A program made the position numbers and the translations under genes. A stretch of DNA of 40,711 bases, taken from NCBI GenBank assembly GCA_017853385.1, contig JAFMJR010000008.1:1-40711 (forward strand). Reading direction: 5' to 3'. The notes under the pieces are model-generated. The model was not told the DNA's origin. It saw nothing but the letters and a program-made list of their open reading frames with translations, and made no database searches. Source of the stretch: Ilumatobacteraceae bacterium (GTDB taxonomy: Bacteria > Actinomycetota > Acidimicrobiia > Acidimicrobiales > Ilumatobacteraceae). This document shows positions 633-15,031 of the stretch, in pieces (the stretch's first letter is position 1; each line of letters starts with the position of its first letter).

Positions 633-1586
633 ATGAATCTCGCAACAACAGACTCAACGTTTAATCACGATCCAGTAATGGCCAACGAAATTGTTGAATT
701 GTTCGGCGCTGTTCCTCACGGAGTAGTGGTTGATGCAACTTTGGGTGGAGCAGGGCACACCATGCGACTGCTTGAAACGTACCCGTGGATGAGCGTTCTT
801 GGTATTGACCAGGATCCGATGGCAATTGAACATGCACGCAGCGTGGCGCCAAAGTTTTCGGGTCGACTCATGGTTCAGCAGGGTCGCTTTGATGGTGTTG
901 CTGAGTATTTGCGAATTCATGATGTTGCAAAGATTTCAGGTGCCCTGTTTGATCTGGGAGTTTCTTCACCTCAGTTTGATGAAGCAGATCGTGGATTTTC
1001 ATACCGCAATGACGGACCACTCGATATGCGAATGGATACTACGCAAAGCTTTAGCGCTGTCGATGTAGTGAACGGTTATGAGGTTCAACAACTAGCCGAC
1101 GTACTGCGAAACAATGCTGATGAACGTTTTGCGTTTCGTATTGCAAAAGCAATCGTTGCTGCTCGTCCTGTGAAGACAACAGTTGAATTGGCTGAGATTG
1201 TGGCAAGTGCAATTCCGGCGCCTGCGCGCAGAACTGGTGGGCATCCAGCAAAGCGAACATTTCAAGCGATTCGAATTGAAGTGAACAAGGAACTCGAGAT
1301 TTTGCCTAAAGCAATTTCTGAAGCGATTGCCGCAACCGAAATTGGTGGTCGCATTGCCGTGCTGTCGTATCACTCGGGCGAGGATCGCATTGTTAAGCAA
1401 GCATTCCGCGATGCGGAAACCAACCCGTCAATTGCCACTATTGCGTCGCCATTTCAACACCATTCATCGGCAGGCAAGTTGGTGAAAAAGGTTCGAGTTG
1501 CCGAGCACGCTTCGGCTGAAGAAATCGCAAGAAACCCTCGCGCATCATCTGCGCGTTTACGGGTAATTGAAAAGGTCGGCTGCTGA
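633..1586 (+). CDS. rsmH: 16S rRNA (cytosine(1402)-N(4))-methyltransferase RsmH
   Basis: RsmH (MraW) methylates N4 of C1402 in the decoding centre of 16S rRNA with S-adenosylmethionine. The 317-residue protein has the family start FNHDPV near residue 10, the SAM-binding stretch DATLGGAGHT at residues 34-43, and the family motifs DLGVSSPQFD, GPLDMRMD and LSYHSGEDRIVK in order. The length is normal. ATG 633 is the first in-frame start that keeps the N-terminal family motif; no Shine-Dalgarno is visible, and the leader hairpins precede it. The gene ends 1 nt before the next start. Confidence 0.96.
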   Translation: MNLATTDSTFNHDPVMANEIVELFGAVPHGVVVDATLGGAGHTMRLLETYPWMSVLGIDQDPMAIEHARSVAPKFSGRLMVQQGRFDGVAEYLRIHDVAKISGALFDLGVSSPQFDEADRGFSYRNDGPLDMRMDTTQSFSAVDVVNGYEVQQLADVLRNNADERFAFRIAKAIVAARPVKTTVELAEIVASAIPAPARRTGGHPAKRTFQAIRIEVNKELEILPKAISEAIAATEIGGRIAVLSYHSGEDRIVKQAFRDAETNPSIATIASPFQHHSSAGKLVKKVRVAEHASAEEIARNPRASSARLRVIEKVGC

Positions 1587-1587
1587 G

Positions 1588-2079
1588 ATGGCGTTAGCGA
1601 TCAACACCGAGAGGGTGCCACAGCGGCAGCCACGCGGTAGTCAATCGATACCCCCTGAACGCCATCTCACAGTCATACCAGGCACATCCAAGCGAACGAT
1701 TGTGTTTTTCAGCGCAATGGTGCTCGGGTTGTTCGTGGTGGTCTCATCGGTGATTGGTTTGCAGGCTTACATTGCTGGTCAGCAATTGAAACTGGACCGC
1801 TTGACGAGTGAGATTTCACTGGCTCGTCATTATCACGACGAGCTTCGTCAGCAGCGTGCTGCATTGCTTGCACCGGAATACCTGCGCGAACAAGCCAAGG
1901 CGATGATGATGACACCAGGTCTTGGTTCGAAGTTTGCAGAGATCCCTCAAGACGTAGTTGCCTCTGTGGTGATCTCAACAGGAAAAATGAATCCTGAATT
2001 TGCAAACCCTTCACAAATTGCATCACTAAATCCGATTGCAAATCTTGGAACTAACGCAGGTGAGGAGGTGCTGCCGTGA
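1588..2079 (+). CDS. ftsL: FtsL-like septum-formation initiator protein
   Basis: This is a small bitopic membrane protein in the usual place of ftsL, between rsmH and ftsI. From ATG 1588 it has about 35 cytoplasmic residues rich in R, P and Q, one transmembrane helix (residues about 39-60), then an extracellular heptad-like stretch (QQLKLDRLTSEI...) expected to form a coiled coil with FtsB/DivIC, and a low-complexity C-terminus. FtsL-type proteins recruit and activate FtsW/FtsI at the septum. Sequence conservation is weak in this family, so the call rests on topology and position. A TTG at 1567 would give a longer form overlapping rsmH; the ATG one base after the rsmH stop is preferred. Confidence 0.8.
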   Translation: MALAINTERVPQRQPRGSQSIPPERHLTVIPGTSKRTIVFFSAMVLGLFVVVSSVIGLQAYIAGQQLKLDRLTSEISLARHYHDELRQQRAALLAPEYLREQAKAMMMTPGLGSKFAEIPQDVVASVVISTGKMNPEFANPSQIASLNPIANLGTNAGEEVLP

Positions 2080-3949: not shown

Positions 3950-5401
3950 ATGGGTGCTTCGCCGGCCGCGACCGGTCAAATGGCGTTGAGCCATTTGGTG
4001 ACGAATTCCCGTATCGCCGAGCACGGAATTACGTTTGAATTTTCTGGTGGAGATGCGCAAATTTGCGACGTCACACATGATTCAAAACAAGTAATACCTG
4101 GTGCATTGTTCTGTTGCATTCGCGGAGCAACATTTGATGGCCATGAATTTGCTCGAGCAGCTGTTGAAGCAGGTGCATCGGCAATTGTCGTCGACCATGC
4201 ATTAGCAATTGATATTCCACAGTTGATTGTGAGCGATGTGCGCGGAGCAATGGGGTACTTGGCTGCCGGGTTACGTGATTTTCCGAGCAAACGCATGCAC
4301 GTAGTGGGCATTACAGGCACCAATGGCAAGACAACCACGGCGCACCTGCTTGCAGAAATATTGAGAGCACACGGGTGGAACACTGAGGTATTCGGAACGC
4401 TGACAGGCGGAAGAACTACTTCGGAAGCTTCGGACTTGCAGCGAAATCTGGCTAGTTGCAAATCGCGTGGAATTCAAGCAGTAGTGATGGAAGTAACTTC
4501 ACACGCTCTTGAATTGCAGAGAGTAAACGGAACAACCTTTGAAGTTGCGGTATTTACCAACCTCTCACAAGACCACTTAGATTTCCATGGGACGTTTGAG
4601 AAGTATTTTGCAGCTAAGGCAAAACTGTTTACTAATCAGTATTCGCTACAAGCAGTGGTGAATCGTGATGATGTCCACGGAAAGTTGTTGCTCGACACGA
4701 TCACCATTGATGCTGTTTCGTTTGGCCTTTCAGATATCAGCAATGTGTCAGTAGATGCACGCCATCATGAGTACGAAATTGCGGGTACGAAAATTTCGGT
4801 GAACTTGGGTGGACATTTCAACGTGATGAATTCACTTGCGGCTGTGAATGCGGCACAAGCCTTAGGAGTTCCGCTTAATGAAATTTCACGCGGTTTAGCA
4901 AATGCATCTGCGGTAGCTGGTCGTTTTGAGTCAATCAGCGCAGGACAAGATTTTGACGTCATCGTTGATTACGCGCACACGCCAGATGCGTTGACGAGGG
5001 TGCTCAATTCTGCGCGTTCGATGATGCAGGGAAACTCGCAATTGATTGTGGTGTTTGGCTGCGGTGGAGACCGTGATATGGACAAGCGCGCCAAGATGGG
5101 GGAGATCGCAGCAATGCTTGCCGATGCAGTGGTGATCACCTCAGACAACCCTCGCTCTGAGTCAGCAGCAGATATTGCAATGCAAATCAATGCTGGAGTG
5201 AGGGACTCGGATTCGCATAAAGTGCTTGGCACCGAATTGGATCGTCGAGCCGCAATAGGTAAGGCAATATCCATTGCTAAAACCGGAGATGTTGTTGTGA
5301 TTGCTGGAAAGGGTCACGAGAGCACTCAAACCATTGGCACAGAAGTTTTTCCATTTAGCGATGCGCAGGTCGCTCGCGAACTATTAGGAGTCCATTCATG
5401 A
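3950..5401 (+). CDS. murE: UDP-MurNAc-L-Ala-D-Glu:meso-diaminopimelate ligase MurE
   Basis: MurE adds the third residue of the peptidoglycan stem peptide in the cytoplasm, using ATP. The 483-residue protein has the N-terminal UDP-binding domain, the P-loop GTNGKTTT, the DHLDFHGT motif and a C-terminal domain. The motif D399-N-P-R402 is the known signature for meso-diaminopimelate instead of lysine, so an A1-gamma type wall is expected. It starts 2 nt after the ftsI stop. The next gene is mraY and overlaps it directly; the usual murF in between is absent. The length is that of MurE alone, so this is not a MurE-MurF fusion. Confidence 0.95.
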   Translation: MGASPAATGQMALSHLVTNSRIAEHGITFEFSGGDAQICDVTHDSKQVIPGALFCCIRGATFDGHEFARAAVEAGASAIVVDHALAIDIPQLIVSDVRGAMGYLAAGLRDFPSKRMHVVGITGTNGKTTTAHLLAEILRAHGWNTEVFGTLTGGRTTSEASDLQRNLASCKSRGIQAVVMEVTSHALELQRVNGTTFEVAVFTNLSQDHLDFHGTFEKYFAAKAKLFTNQYSLQAVVNRDDVHGKLLLDTITIDAVSFGLSDISNVSVDARHHEYEIAGTKISVNLGGHFNVMNSLAAVNAAQALGVPLNEISRGLANASAVAGRFESISAGQDFDVIVDYAHTPDALTRVLNSARSMMQGNSQLIVVFGCGGDRDMDKRAKMGEIAAMLADAVVITSDNPRSESAADIAMQINAGVRDSDSHKVLGTELDRRAAIGKAISIAKTGDVVVIAGKGHESTQTIGTEVFPFSDAQVARELLGVHS

Positions 5402-6444
5402 TCGCAGTCTTAATTGCTGGTGCTGTAGGCATGCTCGTTTCGTTGGCGGCTACTCGCGCATTGATCTCGTTTTTCCAGCGCTTAGGGAAGGGTCAACCAA
5501 TTCTTGGTGCCGAAGATCATGGCCCTGTTCACCAAATGGCAAAACAAGGAACTCCAACCATGGGTGGCATCGCAATCTTGCTTGCCGGATTTTTTGGTTG
5601 GTTAGTTGCGCACTTGCGAGATGGGTTGCCATTTTCGGATCAGGCAGCAGTCATTTGGCTCACGGTTTTTGTGCTCGCTGGAATTGGATTTCTTGACGAT
5701 TATCTGAAAGTTCAACGTCAACACAATCGCGGAATTTTCTGGAAGAAAAAGGGTTGGATCACCTTTGGCATAACTGGTCTGCTGATGTTCGTGCTCGCGT
5801 CAACAACTGGTGTTGCTCAGACCATTTCATTTACTCGTGCATTGAGCCCAGGTTGGGAACTGTCTGGCCCATTGTTCATTGTGTGGACTGCGGTAATGGT
5901 GTGGAGCACTACGAACGCAGTAAATGTGACCGACGGACTCGACGGTCTTGCTGCTGGTTCTGCATTGTTTGGTTTTTTGGCGTTCACCATCATCGCGTAT
6001 TGGGCGTTTAGAAATCCGCGCATCTACGACATCGTGAACCCGCTTGATCTTGCGGTGTTGTCAGCTGCACTTGCTGGTGCCTGTGGAGGATTCTTGTGGT
6101 GGAATGCGGCTCCAGCGCGAATCTTCATGGGTGATGTGGGAGCGCTCGGACTGGGCGCTGCACTCGGAACTCTTGCCGTGACCACTAATACGCATCTCAT
6201 GCTGCCAATCATTTGTGGCATCAATGTTTTTGAAGCGGGTTCAGTAGCAGTTCAGATGGGAGTGTTTAAAGCATCAGGTCGCAAGAAGCGCCTATTGAAA
6301 ATGTCGCCAATTCATCATCACTTTGAACTGAGTGGTTGGCCAGAAACTACGGTCATCATTCGATTCTGGATTATTTCTGGAATCTGTGTTGCAACCGCAG
6401 TTGCAATCTTTATCGCCGACTTCACTAATCAGGTATCACGATGA
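5398..6444 (+). CDS. mraY: Phospho-MurNAc-pentapeptide transferase MraY
   Basis: MraY moves phospho-MurNAc-pentapeptide from UDP to undecaprenyl phosphate, making lipid I at the inner face of the membrane. The 348-residue protein has about ten hydrophobic segments. Catalytic and binding motifs are intact: D100-D101 (LDDYLK), NVTDGLDGLA with D179, FMGDVG with D246, and the HHH motif at 306-308 (SPIHHHFE). The start overlaps the murE stop by 4 nt (ATGA) and the end overlaps murD in the same way, so the three are one translationally coupled unit. Confidence 0.97.
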   Translation: MIAVLIAGAVGMLVSLAATRALISFFQRLGKGQPILGAEDHGPVHQMAKQGTPTMGGIAILLAGFFGWLVAHLRDGLPFSDQAAVIWLTVFVLAGIGFLDDYLKVQRQHNRGIFWKKKGWITFGITGLLMFVLASTTGVAQTISFTRALSPGWELSGPLFIVWTAVMVWSTTNAVNVTDGLDGLAAGSALFGFLAFTIIAYWAFRNPRIYDIVNPLDLAVLSAALAGACGGFLWWNAAPARIFMGDVGALGLGAALGTLAVTTNTHLMLPIICGINVFEAGSVAVQMGVFKASGRKKRLLKMSPIHHHFELSGWPETTVIIRFWIISGICVATAVAIFIADFTNQVSR

Positions 6445-8993: not shown

Positions 8994-10142
8994 ATGGTCG
9001 CCCCCAACTCTCACACCTTTGCCGTGATCACTGGGGGCGGTACAAGCGGGCACGTTGTTCCTGCAATCGCAATTGCAGAGTTGCTCGAAGAAGGTGGCCA
9101 TGCAATGTCGTCACTGCACTACATCGGTTCAGATCGGGGAATTGAGTCGACGATGATGCCAGCTTTTGGCATGGCGCACACGTTGCTATCGGTTGATGGA
9201 TTTCAACGGGGCCTCAGCGTGGCAAAAATCAAGCGAAATGTGCTTATGGTGCCCACCATGCTTCGGGCGTTGCGGAAATCAAAAGCAATACTTCAGCAAT
9301 TGAATCCGCAGGTAGTGATTTCCGTTGGTGGGTACGCGAGTATTCCGGCATGTAGGGCAGCGCGAAGTCTTGGAATTCCTGTTGTTGCATGTTCATACGA
9401 TCGAATGCCAGGTTTGGCTACGCGACTGCAATCTCGATACGCGCATCTTTGCGCAATTGCCTATGAGCCAAGTCAATTGCGCAATGCAGTTCTCACAGGT
9501 GCTCCGGTTCGGCGTGAGGTCCGTCAAGCTGATCTGACTTCTTTGCGCGCGGAAGCACGTCGTTCGCTTGGCATTGACTTGCAAGCACGCGTGGTATTGG
9601 TGATGGGTGGATCACTTGGTTCTGCCGTGCTCAATAGGGCAACTGAGTATTTGGTGAAGTCGTTACGAGGCACCGAACATACCTGCGTAATTCATATTGC
9701 CGGTGAGCGATTTATGGATGCTGTGGCTCTGCCCGAAGTGATGCACCATGAAAACGGAGCGATTGCGTATCAGAGAATTGCTTACTCGCACGACATGATT
9801 TCGTTGTATGCGGCTTCTGATGTTGTGGTGTGTCGTGCTGGTGCAAGCACGATTGCCGAAATTTCAACGGTGGGCATTTGTTCAGTGATTATTCCTTGGA
9901 AAGATGCAGCCGAAAATCATCAGCTGATCAACGCGCAGTGGTTGACGAACCACCAAGGCGCGGTGCTTCTGGAAGAGGGTGACTTGACTCAGCACTCTTT
10001 TGCTCAGACGATCACCGAATTGCTTCGCGATGATGAGCAAAGAATTCGCATTGCTCAGCGCGCGCGTGAGCTTGGCAAGGTGCACCGACAAAGCACAATT
10101 GTGCAAGAAATTGATCGAGTGGCAAAGGCGAAGCGCAGATGA
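8994..10142 (+). CDS. murG: Lipid I N-acetylglucosaminyltransferase MurG
   Basis: MurG adds GlcNAc to lipid I, giving lipid II, at the inner membrane face (GT28 family, GT-B fold). The 382-residue protein has the N-terminal GGGTSGHVVPAIA loop, the VGGYASIPA segment that lines the acceptor site, VLVMGGSLGS at the start of the second domain, and CRAGASTIAE for UDP-GlcNAc binding. It starts 3 nt after the ftsW stop and overlaps murC by 4 nt. Confidence 0.96.
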   Translation: MVAPNSHTFAVITGGGTSGHVVPAIAIAELLEEGGHAMSSLHYIGSDRGIESTMMPAFGMAHTLLSVDGFQRGLSVAKIKRNVLMVPTMLRALRKSKAILQQLNPQVVISVGGYASIPACRAARSLGIPVVACSYDRMPGLATRLQSRYAHLCAIAYEPSQLRNAVLTGAPVRREVRQADLTSLRAEARRSLGIDLQARVVLVMGGSLGSAVLNRATEYLVKSLRGTEHTCVIHIAGERFMDAVALPEVMHHENGAIAYQRIAYSHDMISLYAASDVVVCRAGASTIAEISTVGICSVIIPWKDAAENHQLINAQWLTNHQGAVLLEEGDLTQHSFAQTITELLRDDEQRIRIAQRARELGKVHRQSTIVQEIDRVAKAKRR

Positions 10143-11560
10143 AAAGCGAACTGCGCGTAGATCTATCTCGGCCACAACGAATTCATGTTGTAGGAGTTGG
10201 TGGCCCGGGAATGAGTGCTATCGCACAAGTGCTTCACGAAATGGGAAACAGCGTTTCGGGTAGCGATATTAAAGATTCGGTGGTGGTGCAACGGTTACGT
10301 GATCTTGGCGTTGTGGTCAATGTTGGGCACGATGCGCAAGTGGTGAACGGCTGCGATGCAGTTACGGCATCTACTGCAATTCCTCTGACCAATATTGAAA
10401 TGGAGGCGGCGCGAAGTCTTGGGATTGCCGTACTCACTCGAGCGCAAATTCTCGCATCAATTTGTGCGCAAAAATCTGCCATCGGAGTCGCGGGAACTCA
10501 TGGCAAAACAACAACTTCGTCAATGTTGATGACGGTATTGAGGTCGTCTGGAGCCCGTCCAAGTTTCATCATCGGTGGCGATGTGCACGGGTTTGGTACT
10601 GGTGCATCTTGGGATTCGGGGCAACACCTAGTGGTGGAGGCCGATGAAAGCGACGGCACTCACGAACAGTTGCCACTATTTGGAACCATTGTCACCAACA
10701 TTGATATTGATCATCTAGATCATTTTTCAACTTTTGACAATGTGGTGAACAGTTTCGAAAAATATTTATCAAAGATTCATGGTCCCAAAGTTGTGTGCGC
10801 AGATGATCAGCACCTGCAGAAGATGGCGTTGATGCATCATGCGATTACCTATGGAATAGCGCAACCAGCCAATTATGTGGCGAGAAATATTCAACTCGCT
10901 GACGGTGGCTCTCAATTTGATGTAGTCCATTATGGAAAACCTGGACTTGATGGAGTTGAGCTTGGTCGTGTGCAACTGCGATTGCGCGGCAAGCACAATG
11001 TTTCCAATGCGCTTGGAGTTATTGCAATGGCTCACTCACTCGGAATTGATTTCGTGGAAATCAGCAAGTCGCTTTCAGGTTTTAGTGGAGTTGCTCGGCG
11101 CTTTGATTTTCGAGGAGTTGATGATGGCGTGACATTTGTTGACGACTATGCACACCTTCCAACTGAAATTGAAGCCGTGCTCAGTAGCAGTAAAGATTCG
11201 ACAGATACATGGTCGAGGAGAGTGGCTGTTTTTCAACCAAATCGATTTAATCGCATGGAACATATGTCGGGCGCTTATGCAGATTGCTTCACAATGGCTG
11301 ATCACATCGTGATTACCGATATCTATTCATCAGGAACAACCCCCATTCCCGGTGTAACTGGCAAACTGGTCGTTGATGCAATTCTCGATAAACATCCAAA
11401 CGCTTCTGTTGCGTGGAAGCCAACGCGTGGTGAATTGATAGATCACCTTGCTCATACACTTCGCACAGGAGATCTCTGTATCTCTATGGGGTGTGGTGAT
11501 ATTGAATTGCTGCCCGACGAAGTGATTGCTTCACGCATTGCATTAAGAAGTGCCACATGA
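10139..11560 (+). CDS. murC: UDP-N-acetylmuramate:L-alanine ligase MurC
   Basis: MurC adds the first residue, L-alanine, to UDP-MurNAc in the cytoplasm. The 473-residue protein has the N-terminal GVGGPGMSAIA dinucleotide-like loop, the P-loop GVAGTHGKTTTSS, DIDHLDHF, and DDYAHLPTEI. The last motif has Leu where many MurC proteins have a second His. Both ends overlap neighbours by 4 nt (murG before, murB-ftsQ after). Confidence 0.95.
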   Translation: MKSELRVDLSRPQRIHVVGVGGPGMSAIAQVLHEMGNSVSGSDIKDSVVVQRLRDLGVVVNVGHDAQVVNGCDAVTASTAIPLTNIEMEAARSLGIAVLTRAQILASICAQKSAIGVAGTHGKTTTSSMLMTVLRSSGARPSFIIGGDVHGFGTGASWDSGQHLVVEADESDGTHEQLPLFGTIVTNIDIDHLDHFSTFDNVVNSFEKYLSKIHGPKVVCADDQHLQKMALMHHAITYGIAQPANYVARNIQLADGGSQFDVVHYGKPGLDGVELGRVQLRLRGKHNVSNALGVIAMAHSLGIDFVEISKSLSGFSGVARRFDFRGVDDGVTFVDDYAHLPTEIEAVLSSSKDSTDTWSRRVAVFQPNRFNRMEHMSGAYADCFTMADHIVITDIYSSGTTPIPGVTGKLVVDAILDKHPNASVAWKPTRGELIDHLAHTLRTGDLCISMGCGDIELLPDEVIASRIALRSAT

Positions 11561-13788
11561 GCACACCGCATGATTTGCGCAGGCCAGCAACACCAGAAGC
11601 GATAGAGCATGCCGCTGCATTGTTGGGCGGCAAAGCAAAACGTGACGTACAGGTTTCGCAGTACACCACGTACAAAGTGGGTGGGACTGCTGCATTGCAT
11701 ATGCACATCTCATCAATTGATGATTTGTATGCGGTGAGCGCGGCGTTAGCTGAAGTCGAGTTACCGATTTTGGTAATTGGACGAGGTTCTAACTTGCTCA
11801 TTTCCGACTCGGGTTTTTCTGGGCTTGCTCTCACGATGAGTGGACTTGCTGACTATATAGACCTGCCAAATCGGGAAGATGATCCTGAAATGGAACCGAT
11901 TGCATTATTTGGTGGTTCGGTTGCCTTGCCGGTAGCGGCACGTCAGAGCGTTGCACGTGGACTGACAGGTTTTGAATGGGGAGTGGGAGTGCCCGGCTCG
12001 GTCGGTGGTGCAGTTCGTATGAATGCAGGGGGCCATGGTTCAGACATGGCTTCATCGCTGACGTCAGTACGTATGTTTCATTTGCGTAAAGGAATGGAAG
12101 CAAATGTCAACGCAGTTGACCTTGGCCTGCGCTTTCGGGGGTCGGCGCTTGACGATCATCATGTTGTACTGAGCGCAACGGTCGATCTTGAATGGTCAAA
12201 ATCGCCGGAGGCGTCGGAGGCCGAGCTTCAAGAGGTAGTGCGTTGGCGACGTGAAAATCAACCAGGTGGGCAGAACGCAGGTTCGGTTTTTGTCAATCCC
12301 GAGCCAGGCAGGGTTTCAGCTGGTGCCGTCATCGATGAATTGGGTATGCGTGGTTTGCGCATTGGTTCTGCACAGGTTTCAGAGAAGCACGCAAATTTCA
12401 TTCAGGCAGATGAAGGTGGAAGTGCGAGAGATGTCGTTGCTCTTATGGCGGAAGTGCGTCGTCGCGTACGCGAAGAACGCGGGTATGTACTGCGAAGTGA
12501 AATTCGCCTGATTGGTTTCGAAAATGAAACTGATGCCGCAATCGCAGATTTGATTAATAAAGATTCCGAAGTTGGCGTTTCAACGATTCGCTTAGAGCAA
12601 GTGTTTGAAAAGCCAGCGGTTTCAGCTGATGCAACAGATGCATCAATTCCGATCTCTGTGCTCAATGGTGAAGTGGTGCGCATCGTTGATTCGGATGTTT
12701 CTGACGAAGTACTTGAAGAACTTCGAGAAGCATTTGGCAAAGATGCAACGATTGTTCCAATTAGCAGCGCGACTGGTGGACAACCCGTTCAAGTGGCACC
12801 CGAAGGTGGATTAGTTGCTCCACCAACAGAACGTGTGGTGATTGTTGACGATGACCTTCGAATTGTGACAGACGACGATTTCCCTGCAGACACCATGTCG
12901 CAAACGGTGCATCGTGCTCCAACGTCAACACGAGTTGCAATATTTGACGATGAAGTAATTGACGGAGACGAAAGTTTTGGAGGCGACAGCGTTTCTGGCG
13001 CCGTCATTATTGATGGAACGCATTGGACACAGATTGCACCAAGCCGTCGACTGATTAATGCAGTGAAAAAACTTGTCAAATTGCGTGGAGTAAATCGGCG
13101 CAAGCAATTACTGGTTATTGGCGCGTCGTTTGTGGCTGCTTTGTTGCTCACCCTTATTGTGCTGGCATCTCCAATCGTGGCAGTCCGCAATATTGATATT
13201 GAAGGCGTGAAGTACGCAAACGCAACTTTGATTGAAACAGTGTCAAAGAGCCTGCGTGGCAAGTCTGTGCTTACCGTTGACACCAATGCGGCGCAGAAAT
13301 TATTGGAAACCGATCCATGGATCGAATCTGCGCGCATTAAAACCTATTTGCCTGGTCGCGCAGTGATTGAAATCAATGAACGAGTACCTGTCGCATGGTT
13401 TCTTGGCGTGGACAATCAAGGAAGAGTTATTGACCAAGATGGTCGCGTGCTTGCTGTGGTCAATGGCCGCCCAACCGAGTACATGCTGATCGATGGCATT
13501 GGCCCCAATTTGATTGCGGGAGCGATGGCTTCGGAGTCGTACACCGCGGCTGCTCAACTTGCCATGTCGCTTCCAGATGAAATTCGCCCGGTCATCAAAA
13601 ACATGGGTGTCGATGGACCAAACAATGTCACTATGACTCTGATTACAGGCGCTGTTGTGAAGTTTGGTGAGCCAGTGGATCTGCGCAACAAATTGGTCAA
13701 TGTCGTAGTTATTTTGCGCCGCCAAGACATCAACCAAATTGCAGGAATTGATGTCTCTTCAGGCACGCCAGTGGTGTCGTCGCCGTAG
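11557..13788 (+). CDS. murB-ftsQ: Fused MurB (UDP-N-acetylenolpyruvoylglucosamine reductase) and FtsQ division protein
   Basis: One uninterrupted 743-codon frame carries two proteins that are normally separate. Residues about 25-320 are MurB, the FAD/NADPH enzyme that makes UDP-MurNAc: GRGSNLL, GVPGSVGGAVRMNAG, GSVFVNP with catalytic S243, and E315 in the terminal SEIRLIGF. Residues about 320-515 are an acidic, probably disordered linker rich in D, E, V and T. Residues about 517-540 are a transmembrane helix, followed by a POTRA-like domain (VAVRNIDIEGV to INERVPVAWF) and the FtsQ beta domain. Topology fits: MurB and linker in the cytoplasm, POTRA outside. ATG 11557 overlaps murC by 4 nt. No stop, plausible internal start with Shine-Dalgarno, or compositional break was seen between the parts. 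Confidence 0.92.
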   Translation: MSTPHDLRRPATPEAIEHAAALLGGKAKRDVQVSQYTTYKVGGTAALHMHISSIDDLYAVSAALAEVELPILVIGRGSNLLISDSGFSGLALTMSGLADYIDLPNREDDPEMEPIALFGGSVALPVAARQSVARGLTGFEWGVGVPGSVGGAVRMNAGGHGSDMASSLTSVRMFHLRKGMEANVNAVDLGLRFRGSALDDHHVVLSATVDLEWSKSPEASEAELQEVVRWRRENQPGGQNAGSVFVNPEPGRVSAGAVIDELGMRGLRIGSAQVSEKHANFIQADEGGSARDVVALMAEVRRRVREERGYVLRSEIRLIGFENETDAAIADLINKDSEVGVSTIRLEQVFEKPAVSADATDASIPISVLNGEVVRIVDSDVSDEVLEELREAFGKDATIVPISSATGGQPVQVAPEGGLVAPPTERVVIVDDDLRIVTDDDFPADTMSQTVHRAPTSTRVAIFDDEVIDGDESFGGDSVSGAVIIDGTHWTQIAPSRRLINAVKKLVKLRGVNRRKQLLVIGASFVAALLLTLIVLASPIVAVRNIDIEGVKYANATLIETVSKSLRGKSVLTVDTNAAQKLLETDPWIESARIKTYLPGRAVIEINERVPVAWFLGVDNQGRVIDQDGRVLAVVNGRPTEYMLIDGIGPNLIAGAMASESYTAAAQLAMSLPDEIRPVIKNMGVDGPNNVTMTLITGAVVKFGEPVDLRNKLVNVVVILRRQDINQIAGIDVSSGTPVVSSP

Positions 13789-13917: not shown

Positions 13918-13927
13918 CATGGACAAA

Positions 13928-15031
13928 ATGGCTGGAGCACCGCACAACTTTCTTGCAGTGATCAAGGTGATTGGCGTAGGCGGCGGTGGAATCAACGCAG
14001 TCCAGCGCATGATCGACTCGGGAATGAAGGGCGTTGAGTTCATCGCCATCAACACGGATGCTCAAGCGCTCATGATGAGCGATGCCGAAGTGAAAATTGA
14101 CATTGGTCGTGAATTCACGCGCGGTCTCGGTGCTGGTAGCGATCCTGAAGTTGGTCGCGAGGCAGCAGAGTCAAGCCGCGCAGAAATTGAAGAACTTGTT
14201 GCTGGCGCAGACATGGTGTTCATTACTGCTGGCGAAGGCGGTGGAACGGGAACTGGTGCTGCACCGGTTATCGCAGAAATTTCGCGTGCTGCTGGAGCAT
14301 TGACGGTTGGAATCGTGACTCGTCCCTTCAACTTTGAGGGTCGTCGTCGTGCATTGCAAGCAGAAGCCGGTATTGCAAAGCTGCGCGAAAAAGTTGACAC
14401 TCTGATTGTTATTCCAAATGAGCGCTTGCTCTCTATCTCAAGCGACAAGACAAGTTTGCTTGCAGCGTTTGCATCAGCAGACCAAGTGTTGCTCGACGGA
14501 GTTGTTGGTATTACTGGTCTCATCATGACACCAGGCTTGATCAACACTGACTTTGCAGACGTGAAAATGATTCTGAAAAATGCAGGCACATCATTGATGG
14601 GCATTGGTCGTGGCACTGGAGACAACCGTGCAACAGTTGCTGCAAATGCAGCGATCAATTCACCGTTGCTTGAATCTTCTGTAGAAGGTGCACGCGGCAT
14701 CTTGTTGAATATCGCTGGTCCTTCAGATCTTGGATTGTTCGAAGTAAACACAGCATCTGAAATCATTCATGCAGTTGCGCACCCTGATGCGAACATTATT
14801 TTCGGTTCGGTAATTGATGACGAACTTGACGACGAAGTGAAGATCACTGTGATTGCCGCCGGCTTTGACCGCAACGACAACACCAGCTCGCGTCCACGCG
14901 AGGTTCGCACAGGTGACACTGGTCGCTTGCCAGAGCAGCGGGGAAGTCGTTTGAAGGAGTTGTTCGGTGCAGGTGAAGACCCACTTCGCGACGATGACGA
15001 TGGGCTCGATGTTCCTTCTTTCTTGAAGTAA
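13928..15031 (+). CDS. ftsZ: Cell division protein FtsZ
   Basis: FtsZ is the tubulin-like GTPase that forms the Z ring. The protein (367 residues from ATG 13928) begins [21 protein letters not shown], the usual actinobacterial start, and has the tubulin signature [11 protein letters not shown], the T7 region [10 protein letters not shown] and the conserved C-terminal tail ending DVPSFLK that binds partners such as SepF. A disordered linker of about 50 residues precedes the tail. No ftsA is nearby, consistent with SepF (two genes downstream) acting as the membrane anchor. Confidence 0.97.

What the first reader, a model, noticed from the sequence alone, without database searches (positions are those of the whole stretch)
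11557..13788. MurB and FtsQ encoded as one protein with a long acidic linker
A precursor enzyme and a division-site membrane protein are joined in one open frame. MurB active-site residues (S243, E315) and the FtsQ transmembrane helix and POTRA domain all look intact, so both halves should work. The fusion would anchor UDP-MurNAc synthesis at the divisome, in a cluster where murB and ftsQ are normally separate neighbours. The roughly 195-residue D/E/V-rich linker could be cleaved or act as a spacer. I do not know whether this fusion has been described.
Basis: partly seen in the sequence, partly recalled or inferred. Interest (0 to 1): 0.75.

Follow-up and report, generated by a model that had tools for sequence, protein, structure and literature searches.

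The report
Cell-wall enzyme fused to division protein
In a group of small freshwater bacteria, the only copy of an early cell-wall enzyme (MurB) is made as one chain with the membrane division protein FtsQ, and close relatives fuse the neighbouring wall genes in other combinations, which suggests that wall-precursor enzymes and the division machinery work as one assembly.

Summary
Window 11557-13788 is one 743-aa frame with MurB (1-322), a 193-residue linker and FtsQ (TM helix 514-537, POTRA, C-terminal domain). It is the only POTRA_1/FtsQ and the only match to this MurB in the genome. It is not an assembly error: 33 genomes of three Ilumatobacteraceae genera read here carry it (down to ~50% identity), with no intact exception; 18 other genera of the family have murB and ftsQ separate, usually overlapping. 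All fused rows form one clade. The linker is no new spacer: it is the old cytoplasmic tail of FtsQ, with motifs shared with stand-alone FtsQ and dN/dS as low as 0.05. I found no Shine-Dalgarno-like internal start. The same gene run murG-murC-murB-ftsQ is fused differently in relatives: MurG-MurC + MurB-FtsQ, MurC-MurB, and MurG-MurC-MurB with FtsQ free; MurG-MurC changes three times on the tree. Best reading: a bifunctional, membrane-tethered MurB held near the divisome by FtsQ's flexible tail. Localisation, activity and absence of cleavage are untested. The genus also keeps MreB and RodA, so this MurB must feed elongation too. Mur-Mur fusions are known; I found no published MurB-FtsQ fusion in the open library.

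The parts
11557..13788 (+). murB-ftsQ fused gene, 743 aa; starts inside the murC stop (ATGA overlap)
   Evidence: fused in 33 genomes
11557..12522 (+). MurB domain, residues 1-322; catalytic S243 and E315 invariant
   Evidence: Pfam; TIGR00179 167.1 bits over cut-off 144.5; alignment; pLDDT mostly over 90; Foldseek 4pyt/1hsk target TM 0.89-0.90
12523..12702 (+). linker part a, residues 323-382: C-terminal extension of MurB (two predicted helices 327-337, 341-351) and start of the former FtsQ tail; the fusion point lies in this part
   Evidence: dN/dS 0.09-0.27
12703..12747 (+). short helix motif DVSDEVLEELREAFG region, residues 383-397, shared with the N-terminus of stand-alone FtsQ
   Evidence: 39 of 58 stand-alone tails, shuffled mean 0.05; helix 383-392 in model
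12832..12960 (+). acidic motif region, residues 426-468 (RVVIVDDDLRIVTDDDFPADTMSQTVHRAPTSTRVAIFDDE)
   Evidence: dN/dS 0.05-0.06 in the window's genus; VxIxDD-type pattern in 29 of 58 stand-alone tails against 0.5 shuffled
13027..13101 (+). basic juxtamembrane segment, residues 491-515, net charge +8
13096..13167 (+). transmembrane helix of FtsQ, residues 514-537
13180..13383 (+). POTRA domain of FtsQ; only POTRA_1 match in the genome
13414..13755 (+). FtsQ/DivIB C-terminal domain, residues 620-733
   Evidence: Foldseek to FtsQ 6h9o, 5z2w, 2vh1, 8hhf
10139..11560 (+). murC, separate here; fused to murG or murB in relatives
8994..10142 (+). murG, separate here (4-base overlap with murC); fused to murC in relatives
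13919..15031 (+). ftsZ, next gene downstream

Best explanation
One polypeptide supplies both essential functions. MurB lies on the cytoplasmic side as an N-terminal cap on FtsQ; the former FtsQ cytoplasmic tail (disordered, acidic, with a short conserved helix and a basic juxtamembrane segment) is the flexible tether; a single TM helix and the POTRA/C-terminal domains outside join the FtsQ-L-B part of the divisome. It arose once, most simply when the overlapping murB stop / ftsQ start was lost by a small frame change. The likely effect is that the second committed step of precursor synthesis is held at the membrane near the division site, next to MurC and MurG, whose genes fuse with these neighbours in relatives. 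Shown: the fused frame, its conservation, intact catalytic residues and predicted folds, one clade, origin of the linker, recurrent fusions of adjacent junctions. Inferred: full-length protein in the cell, activity of both halves, localisation, any channelling. Because MurB's product is soluble and the genus keeps an MreB/RodA elongation system, the tether probably concentrates rather than confines precursor synthesis.
For: Domains over cut-offs; invariant catalytic residues; model with both halves folded and residues 396-495 disordered and fold matches to MurB and FtsQ; purifying selection along the whole ORF; only one MurB-type match and one FtsQ in the genome; 33 of 33 readable genomes fused; one clade, one change; no SD-preceded in-frame start in the linker and no conserved one except a TTG leucine codon; tail homology to stand-alone FtsQ; MurG-MurC fusion changes three times, AU p 0.0004 against one clade. 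Precedents: in E. coli MurG needs FtsQ to reach mid-cell (PMC2170320); in M. tuberculosis the long FtsQ tail has a basic helix that binds upstream acidic residues, acidic membrane and FtsZ (PMC10036325).
Against: No protein-level data. MreB (two copies) and RodA are present, so wall synthesis is not only septal. FtsQ is scarce in model bacteria (own knowledge), and a 1:1 fusion forces equal amounts. The less constrained, disordered part of the linker could be cut by a protease. The clade is small-genomed, so fusion could be a near-neutral by-product of overlapping genes.
Confidence: 0.58

Rival explanations
1. Neutral fusion. In a streamlined genome the overlapping murB/ftsQ pair lost its frame shift by chance; translational coupling already made the two proteins at a fixed ratio, and the long disordered FtsQ tail made the join harmless. 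The join has no functional gain; it persists because it is hard to undo.
For: In 45 of 58 separate pairs the ftsQ start overlaps the murB stop, so one small indel suffices; fused-clade genomes are mostly 1.2-2.0 Mb; the fused junctions differ between relatives.
Against: Fusions pile up in one clade at three adjacent junctions, while other small-genomed genera (g13, g25, about 2 Mb) with similarly arranged genes stay separate; no intact reversal in three diverged genera.
Confidence: 0.27
2. Processed precursor. The chain is translated as one but cut in the disordered linker (residues 396-490), releasing free MurB; the fusion only fixes the ratio of synthesis.
For: Residues 396-495 have pLDDT under 50; parts of the linker evolve fast (dN/dS up to 0.36 in the window's genus).
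Against: No conserved cleavage motif was recognised; the most conserved linker parts are motifs that free FtsQ also has, so their conservation needs no protease.
Confidence: 0.12
3. Two products by internal initiation: full-length plus a separate FtsQ from a start in the linker.
For: GTG codons lie in the linker, e.g. residues 368, 373, 374.
Against: None is preceded by a Shine-Dalgarno-like sequence, and the only linker column in which at least 60% of the fused genes have a start codon is a TTG leucine inside the helix motif.
Confidence: 0.03

Closest known systems
MurB/C fusion of Verrucomicrobium spinosum (PMC4803751)
   Same: MurB joined to the neighbouring dcw protein in one chain; complements both E. 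coli mutants
   Different: partner is the soluble ligase MurC and MurB comes first; no membrane or divisome part
MurE-MurF of Bordetella pertussis with the MurG scaffold; MurB-MurC, MurG-MurC, MurC-Ddl and MraY-MurG fusions listed there (PMC6420597)
   Same: fusion of wall-precursor genes, read as a sign of a Mur complex; MurG-MurC and MurC-MurB also occur in relatives of the window
   Different: all partners are enzymes of the pathway; no fusion with a divisome protein is listed
M. tuberculosis FtsQ with a long cytoplasmic tail (PMC10036325)
   Same: disordered acidic tail plus basic segment before the TM helix, in an actinobacterium
   Different: no MurB; binding of the window's tail to FtsZ or membrane not tested here
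E. coli MurG recruitment to mid-cell, which needs FtsQ and PBP3 (PMC2170320)
   Same: links a precursor enzyme to FtsQ
   Different: non-covalent, and MurG not MurB

Membership tests
MurB (UDP-N-acetylmuramate dehydrogenase) | match to the equivalog model over its cut-off | tested here: met
   TIGR00179 167.1 bits, cut-off 144.5; a second, stricter model NF010480 gives 237.5 against 259
MurB (UDP-N-acetylmuramate dehydrogenase) | catalytic Ser and Glu | tested here: met
   S243 and E315 invariant in 28 fused proteins and aligned with 4pyt and 1hsk
MurB (UDP-N-acetylmuramate dehydrogenase) | reductase activity | not testable with these tools
   needs assay
FtsQ/DivIB | FtsQ-type POTRA and FtsQ/DivIB C-terminal domain over gathering scores | tested here: met
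   POTRA_1 40.0 against 23 bits, FtsQ_DivIB_C 26.9 against 21; Foldseek to FtsQ structures
FtsQ/DivIB | single TM helix with N-terminus in the cytoplasm, gene next to ftsZ | tested here: met
   predicted helix 514-537 with +8 segment on its N side; ftsZ at 13919; by prediction only
FtsQ/DivIB | NCBIfam FtsQ equivalog cut-off | tested here: not met
   NF004039 68.3 against 353 bits; I take this model to be narrow and do not weigh it heavily
FtsQ/DivIB | binds FtsB/FtsL, works at the septum | not testable with these tools
   needs experiment
Mur fusion enzymes | two peptidoglycan-pathway or dcw proteins in one natural chain | tested here: met
Mur fusion enzymes | both halves are enzymes of the precursor pathway | tested here: not met
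   FtsQ half carries POTRA and FtsQ domains, no enzyme domain

The most novel reading that the evidence does not exclude
MurG, MurC, MurB and FtsQ form one standing assembly at the division membrane in these bacteria, so tight that every adjacent pair has been fused in one lineage or another, and the conserved FtsQ tail motif is its hub; the covalent MurB-FtsQ link ties the start of precursor synthesis to the activator of septal wall synthesis.
Probability: 0.28. Interest if true: 0.8.

Novelty: new variant of a known kind. Interest (0 to 1): 0.62.

Why it matters
Whether the cytoplasmic Mur enzymes act as a membrane-bound complex coupled to the divisome is a long-standing question. Here nature has made the covalent link: a whole clade appears to have no free MurB and no free FtsQ, and its relatives fuse the neighbouring genes in other ways. 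That makes the question testable by localising or splitting one protein, and gives natural scaffolds for channelling tests. It also exposes a recurring motif in the FtsQ tail of Ilumatobacteraceae for which I found no description.

Tried and rejected
Assembly or sequencing error: rejected by 33 separately assembled genomes. Second MurB or FtsQ elsewhere in the genome: none found. A quadruple MurG-MurC-MurB-FtsQ protein in G147, suggested by an open frame of 1596 aa: rejected, MurG-MurC lies in another frame. MurB-FtsQ fusion in genus g13, suggested by a 667-aa frame: rejected, an in-frame stop separates them. Long open frames in other families of order, class and phylum, read as possible MurB-FtsQ fusions: those fetched were long chance frames of GC-rich DNA or MurC-MurB. 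FtsE paper with many MurB mentions (PMC10269673): only gene silencing, no link. Other bacterial phyla were not surveyed systematically: the one scan over all species keeps only the 80 nearest relatives.

Full report
WHAT IS THERE. The frame 11557-13788 (+) encodes 743 aa without a stop. Pfam finds FAD_binding_4 (51-174), MurB_C (222-319), POTRA_1 (542-609) and FtsQ_DivIB_C (620-733), all above their curated scores; TIGR00179 murB is over its cut-off. The gene sits in a dcw cluster: mraZ, mraW, ftsI, murE, mraY, murD, ftsW, murG, murC, murB-ftsQ, ftsZ, a YggS-like gene, sepF. It overlaps the murC stop by four bases (ATGA), as murC overlaps murG. The genome (G000, 1.5 Mb, 122 contigs, 90% complete) has no other match to the fused protein and only one POTRA_1 domain, so the fusion has to supply both functions unless a copy is missing from the assembly.

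IT IS REAL AND CONSERVED. A scan of 200 genomes of the family and direct reading of loci shows the fused frame in all intact loci of three genera (g1, the window's own; g4; g9): 33 genomes read, one more cut by a contig end. Sequence identity falls to about 50%. Record titles place these in Ilumatobacteraceae/acIV freshwater actinobacteria; the contig of G168 has the same length as that of a BACL27 MAG. Pairwise dN/dS in the window's genus is 0.05 for MurB and 0.03-0.06 for the FtsQ domains. The catalytic S243 and E315 are invariant and align with solved MurB structures. An AlphaFold2 model (70 sequences, mean pLDDT 82, pTM 0.54) folds both halves well; the low pTM and disordered linker give no fixed orientation between them. 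Foldseek matches MurB (4pyt, 1hsk, target TM 0.89-0.90) and FtsQ (6h9o, 5z2w, 2vh1, 8hhf).

WHERE THE LINKER COMES FROM. In 18 other genera of the family murB and ftsQ are separate neighbours; in 45 of 58 distinct pairs the ftsQ start overlaps the murB stop. Those stand-alone FtsQ proteins carry a long cytoplasmic tail (median 139 residues) with two recurring motifs: a short helix of the form VL(D/E)ELxxAF near the N-terminus (39 of 58; 0.05 expected from shuffles) and VxIxDD (29 of 58; 0.5 expected). Both are in the linker of the fused proteins: DVSDEVLEELREAFG at 383-397 and RVVIVDDDLRIVTDDDF...RVAIFDDE at 426-468. The second region has dN/dS 0.05-0.06 in the window's genus, as low as the enzyme. 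The patterns were written after seeing the sequences, and many rows are related, so the counts show that the motifs recur, not an unbiased probability. The linker also ends in a basic segment (+8) before the TM helix. So the linker is mostly the old FtsQ tail, preceded by a short C-terminal extension of MurB. M. tuberculosis FtsQ has a comparable disordered tail whose basic helix binds upstream acidic residues, acidic lipid and the FtsZ GTPase domain (PMC10036325); whether this tail does so is untested.

ORIGIN AND NEIGHBOURING FUSIONS. In a tree of concatenated MurB and FtsQ domains (103 rows, quick method) all fused rows form one clade (SH-aLRT 96) and the label changes once. Unexpectedly, the adjacent junctions are fused too, in different ways: g4 and the odd genome G147 have MurG-MurC plus MurB-FtsQ; genus g2 has either MurC-MurB or MurG-MurC-MurB (1164-1185 aa) with FtsQ free; g3 and the rest are separate. 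Pfam domains are complete in the triple and double fusions tested. MurG-MurC changes three times on the tree and one clade is rejected (AU p 0.0004; the group was named after seeing the tree); MurC-MurB changes three times and also occurs in other families. Scans of about 150 genomes each across order, class and phylum, with the long open frames that were fetched checked, showed no MurB-FtsQ fusion outside the three genera. A few long frames in those lists were not fetched, and other phyla were not surveyed.

HOW IT LIKELY WORKS. FtsQ is a type II membrane protein, so an N-terminal MurB lies in the cytoplasm, where its substrates are: the topology fits. The tether of about 190 flexible residues lets MurB reach around while FtsQ joins the divisome. 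In E. coli MurG needs FtsQ and PBP3 to reach mid-cell (PMC2170320), and colocalisation of MurB, C, E, F and MraY with MurG in Caulobacter is cited in PMC6420597, so a precursor complex near the divisome is plausible. The recurrent fusions of exactly these neighbours fit that, but they also fit simple merging of overlapping genes. Its product is soluble, so the tether may concentrate synthesis but cannot confine it. Internal initiation is not supported; cleavage cannot be excluded.

KNOWN OR NEW. Fusions between Mur enzymes are known: MurB/C in Verrucomicrobia (PMC4803751), MurE-MurF in Bordetella, and MurG-MurC, MurC-Ddl and MraY-MurG as listed in PMC6420597. Searches of the open library found no MurB-FtsQ fusion and no fusion of a precursor enzyme with a divisome protein; subscription papers were not searched. 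I rate it a new variant of a known kind.

Noticed in passing
L071, L072, L073 (genus g2): MurG-MurC-MurB triple fusions of 1164-1185 aa, with all Pfam domains present in the two tested (L071, L073); FtsQ separate. Sister species have MurC-MurB only.
   Followed up: partly
L102, L103, L108-L112, L118, L119, L122, L197 (g4 clade): Two bifunctional proteins side by side: MurG-MurC and MurB-FtsQ.
   Followed up: partly
L078, L079, L080, L083, L186, L188: MurC-MurB fusions in other families of the order and class (domain order reversed relative to the Verrucomicrobia MurB/C).
   Followed up: partly
L076 5319-5321 (G013) and L077 (genus g13): murB and ftsQ lie in the same frame separated by a single in-frame stop (TAG in L076), with an ATG four codons later in L076; read-through not tested.
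   Followed up: partly
window 3950-6444: murF is missing between murE and mraY; pieces of a murF-like gene lie on contigs C112 and C23 of the same assembly.
   Followed up: partly
window 1567-2079: 170-aa ORF between mraW and ftsI with no Pfam match; position of ftsL.
   Followed up: no
G000:C18:1889-7871 and G000:C20:4815-5783: MreB and a RodA-type protein together on C18, second MreB on C20: an elongation system is retained.
   Followed up: partly
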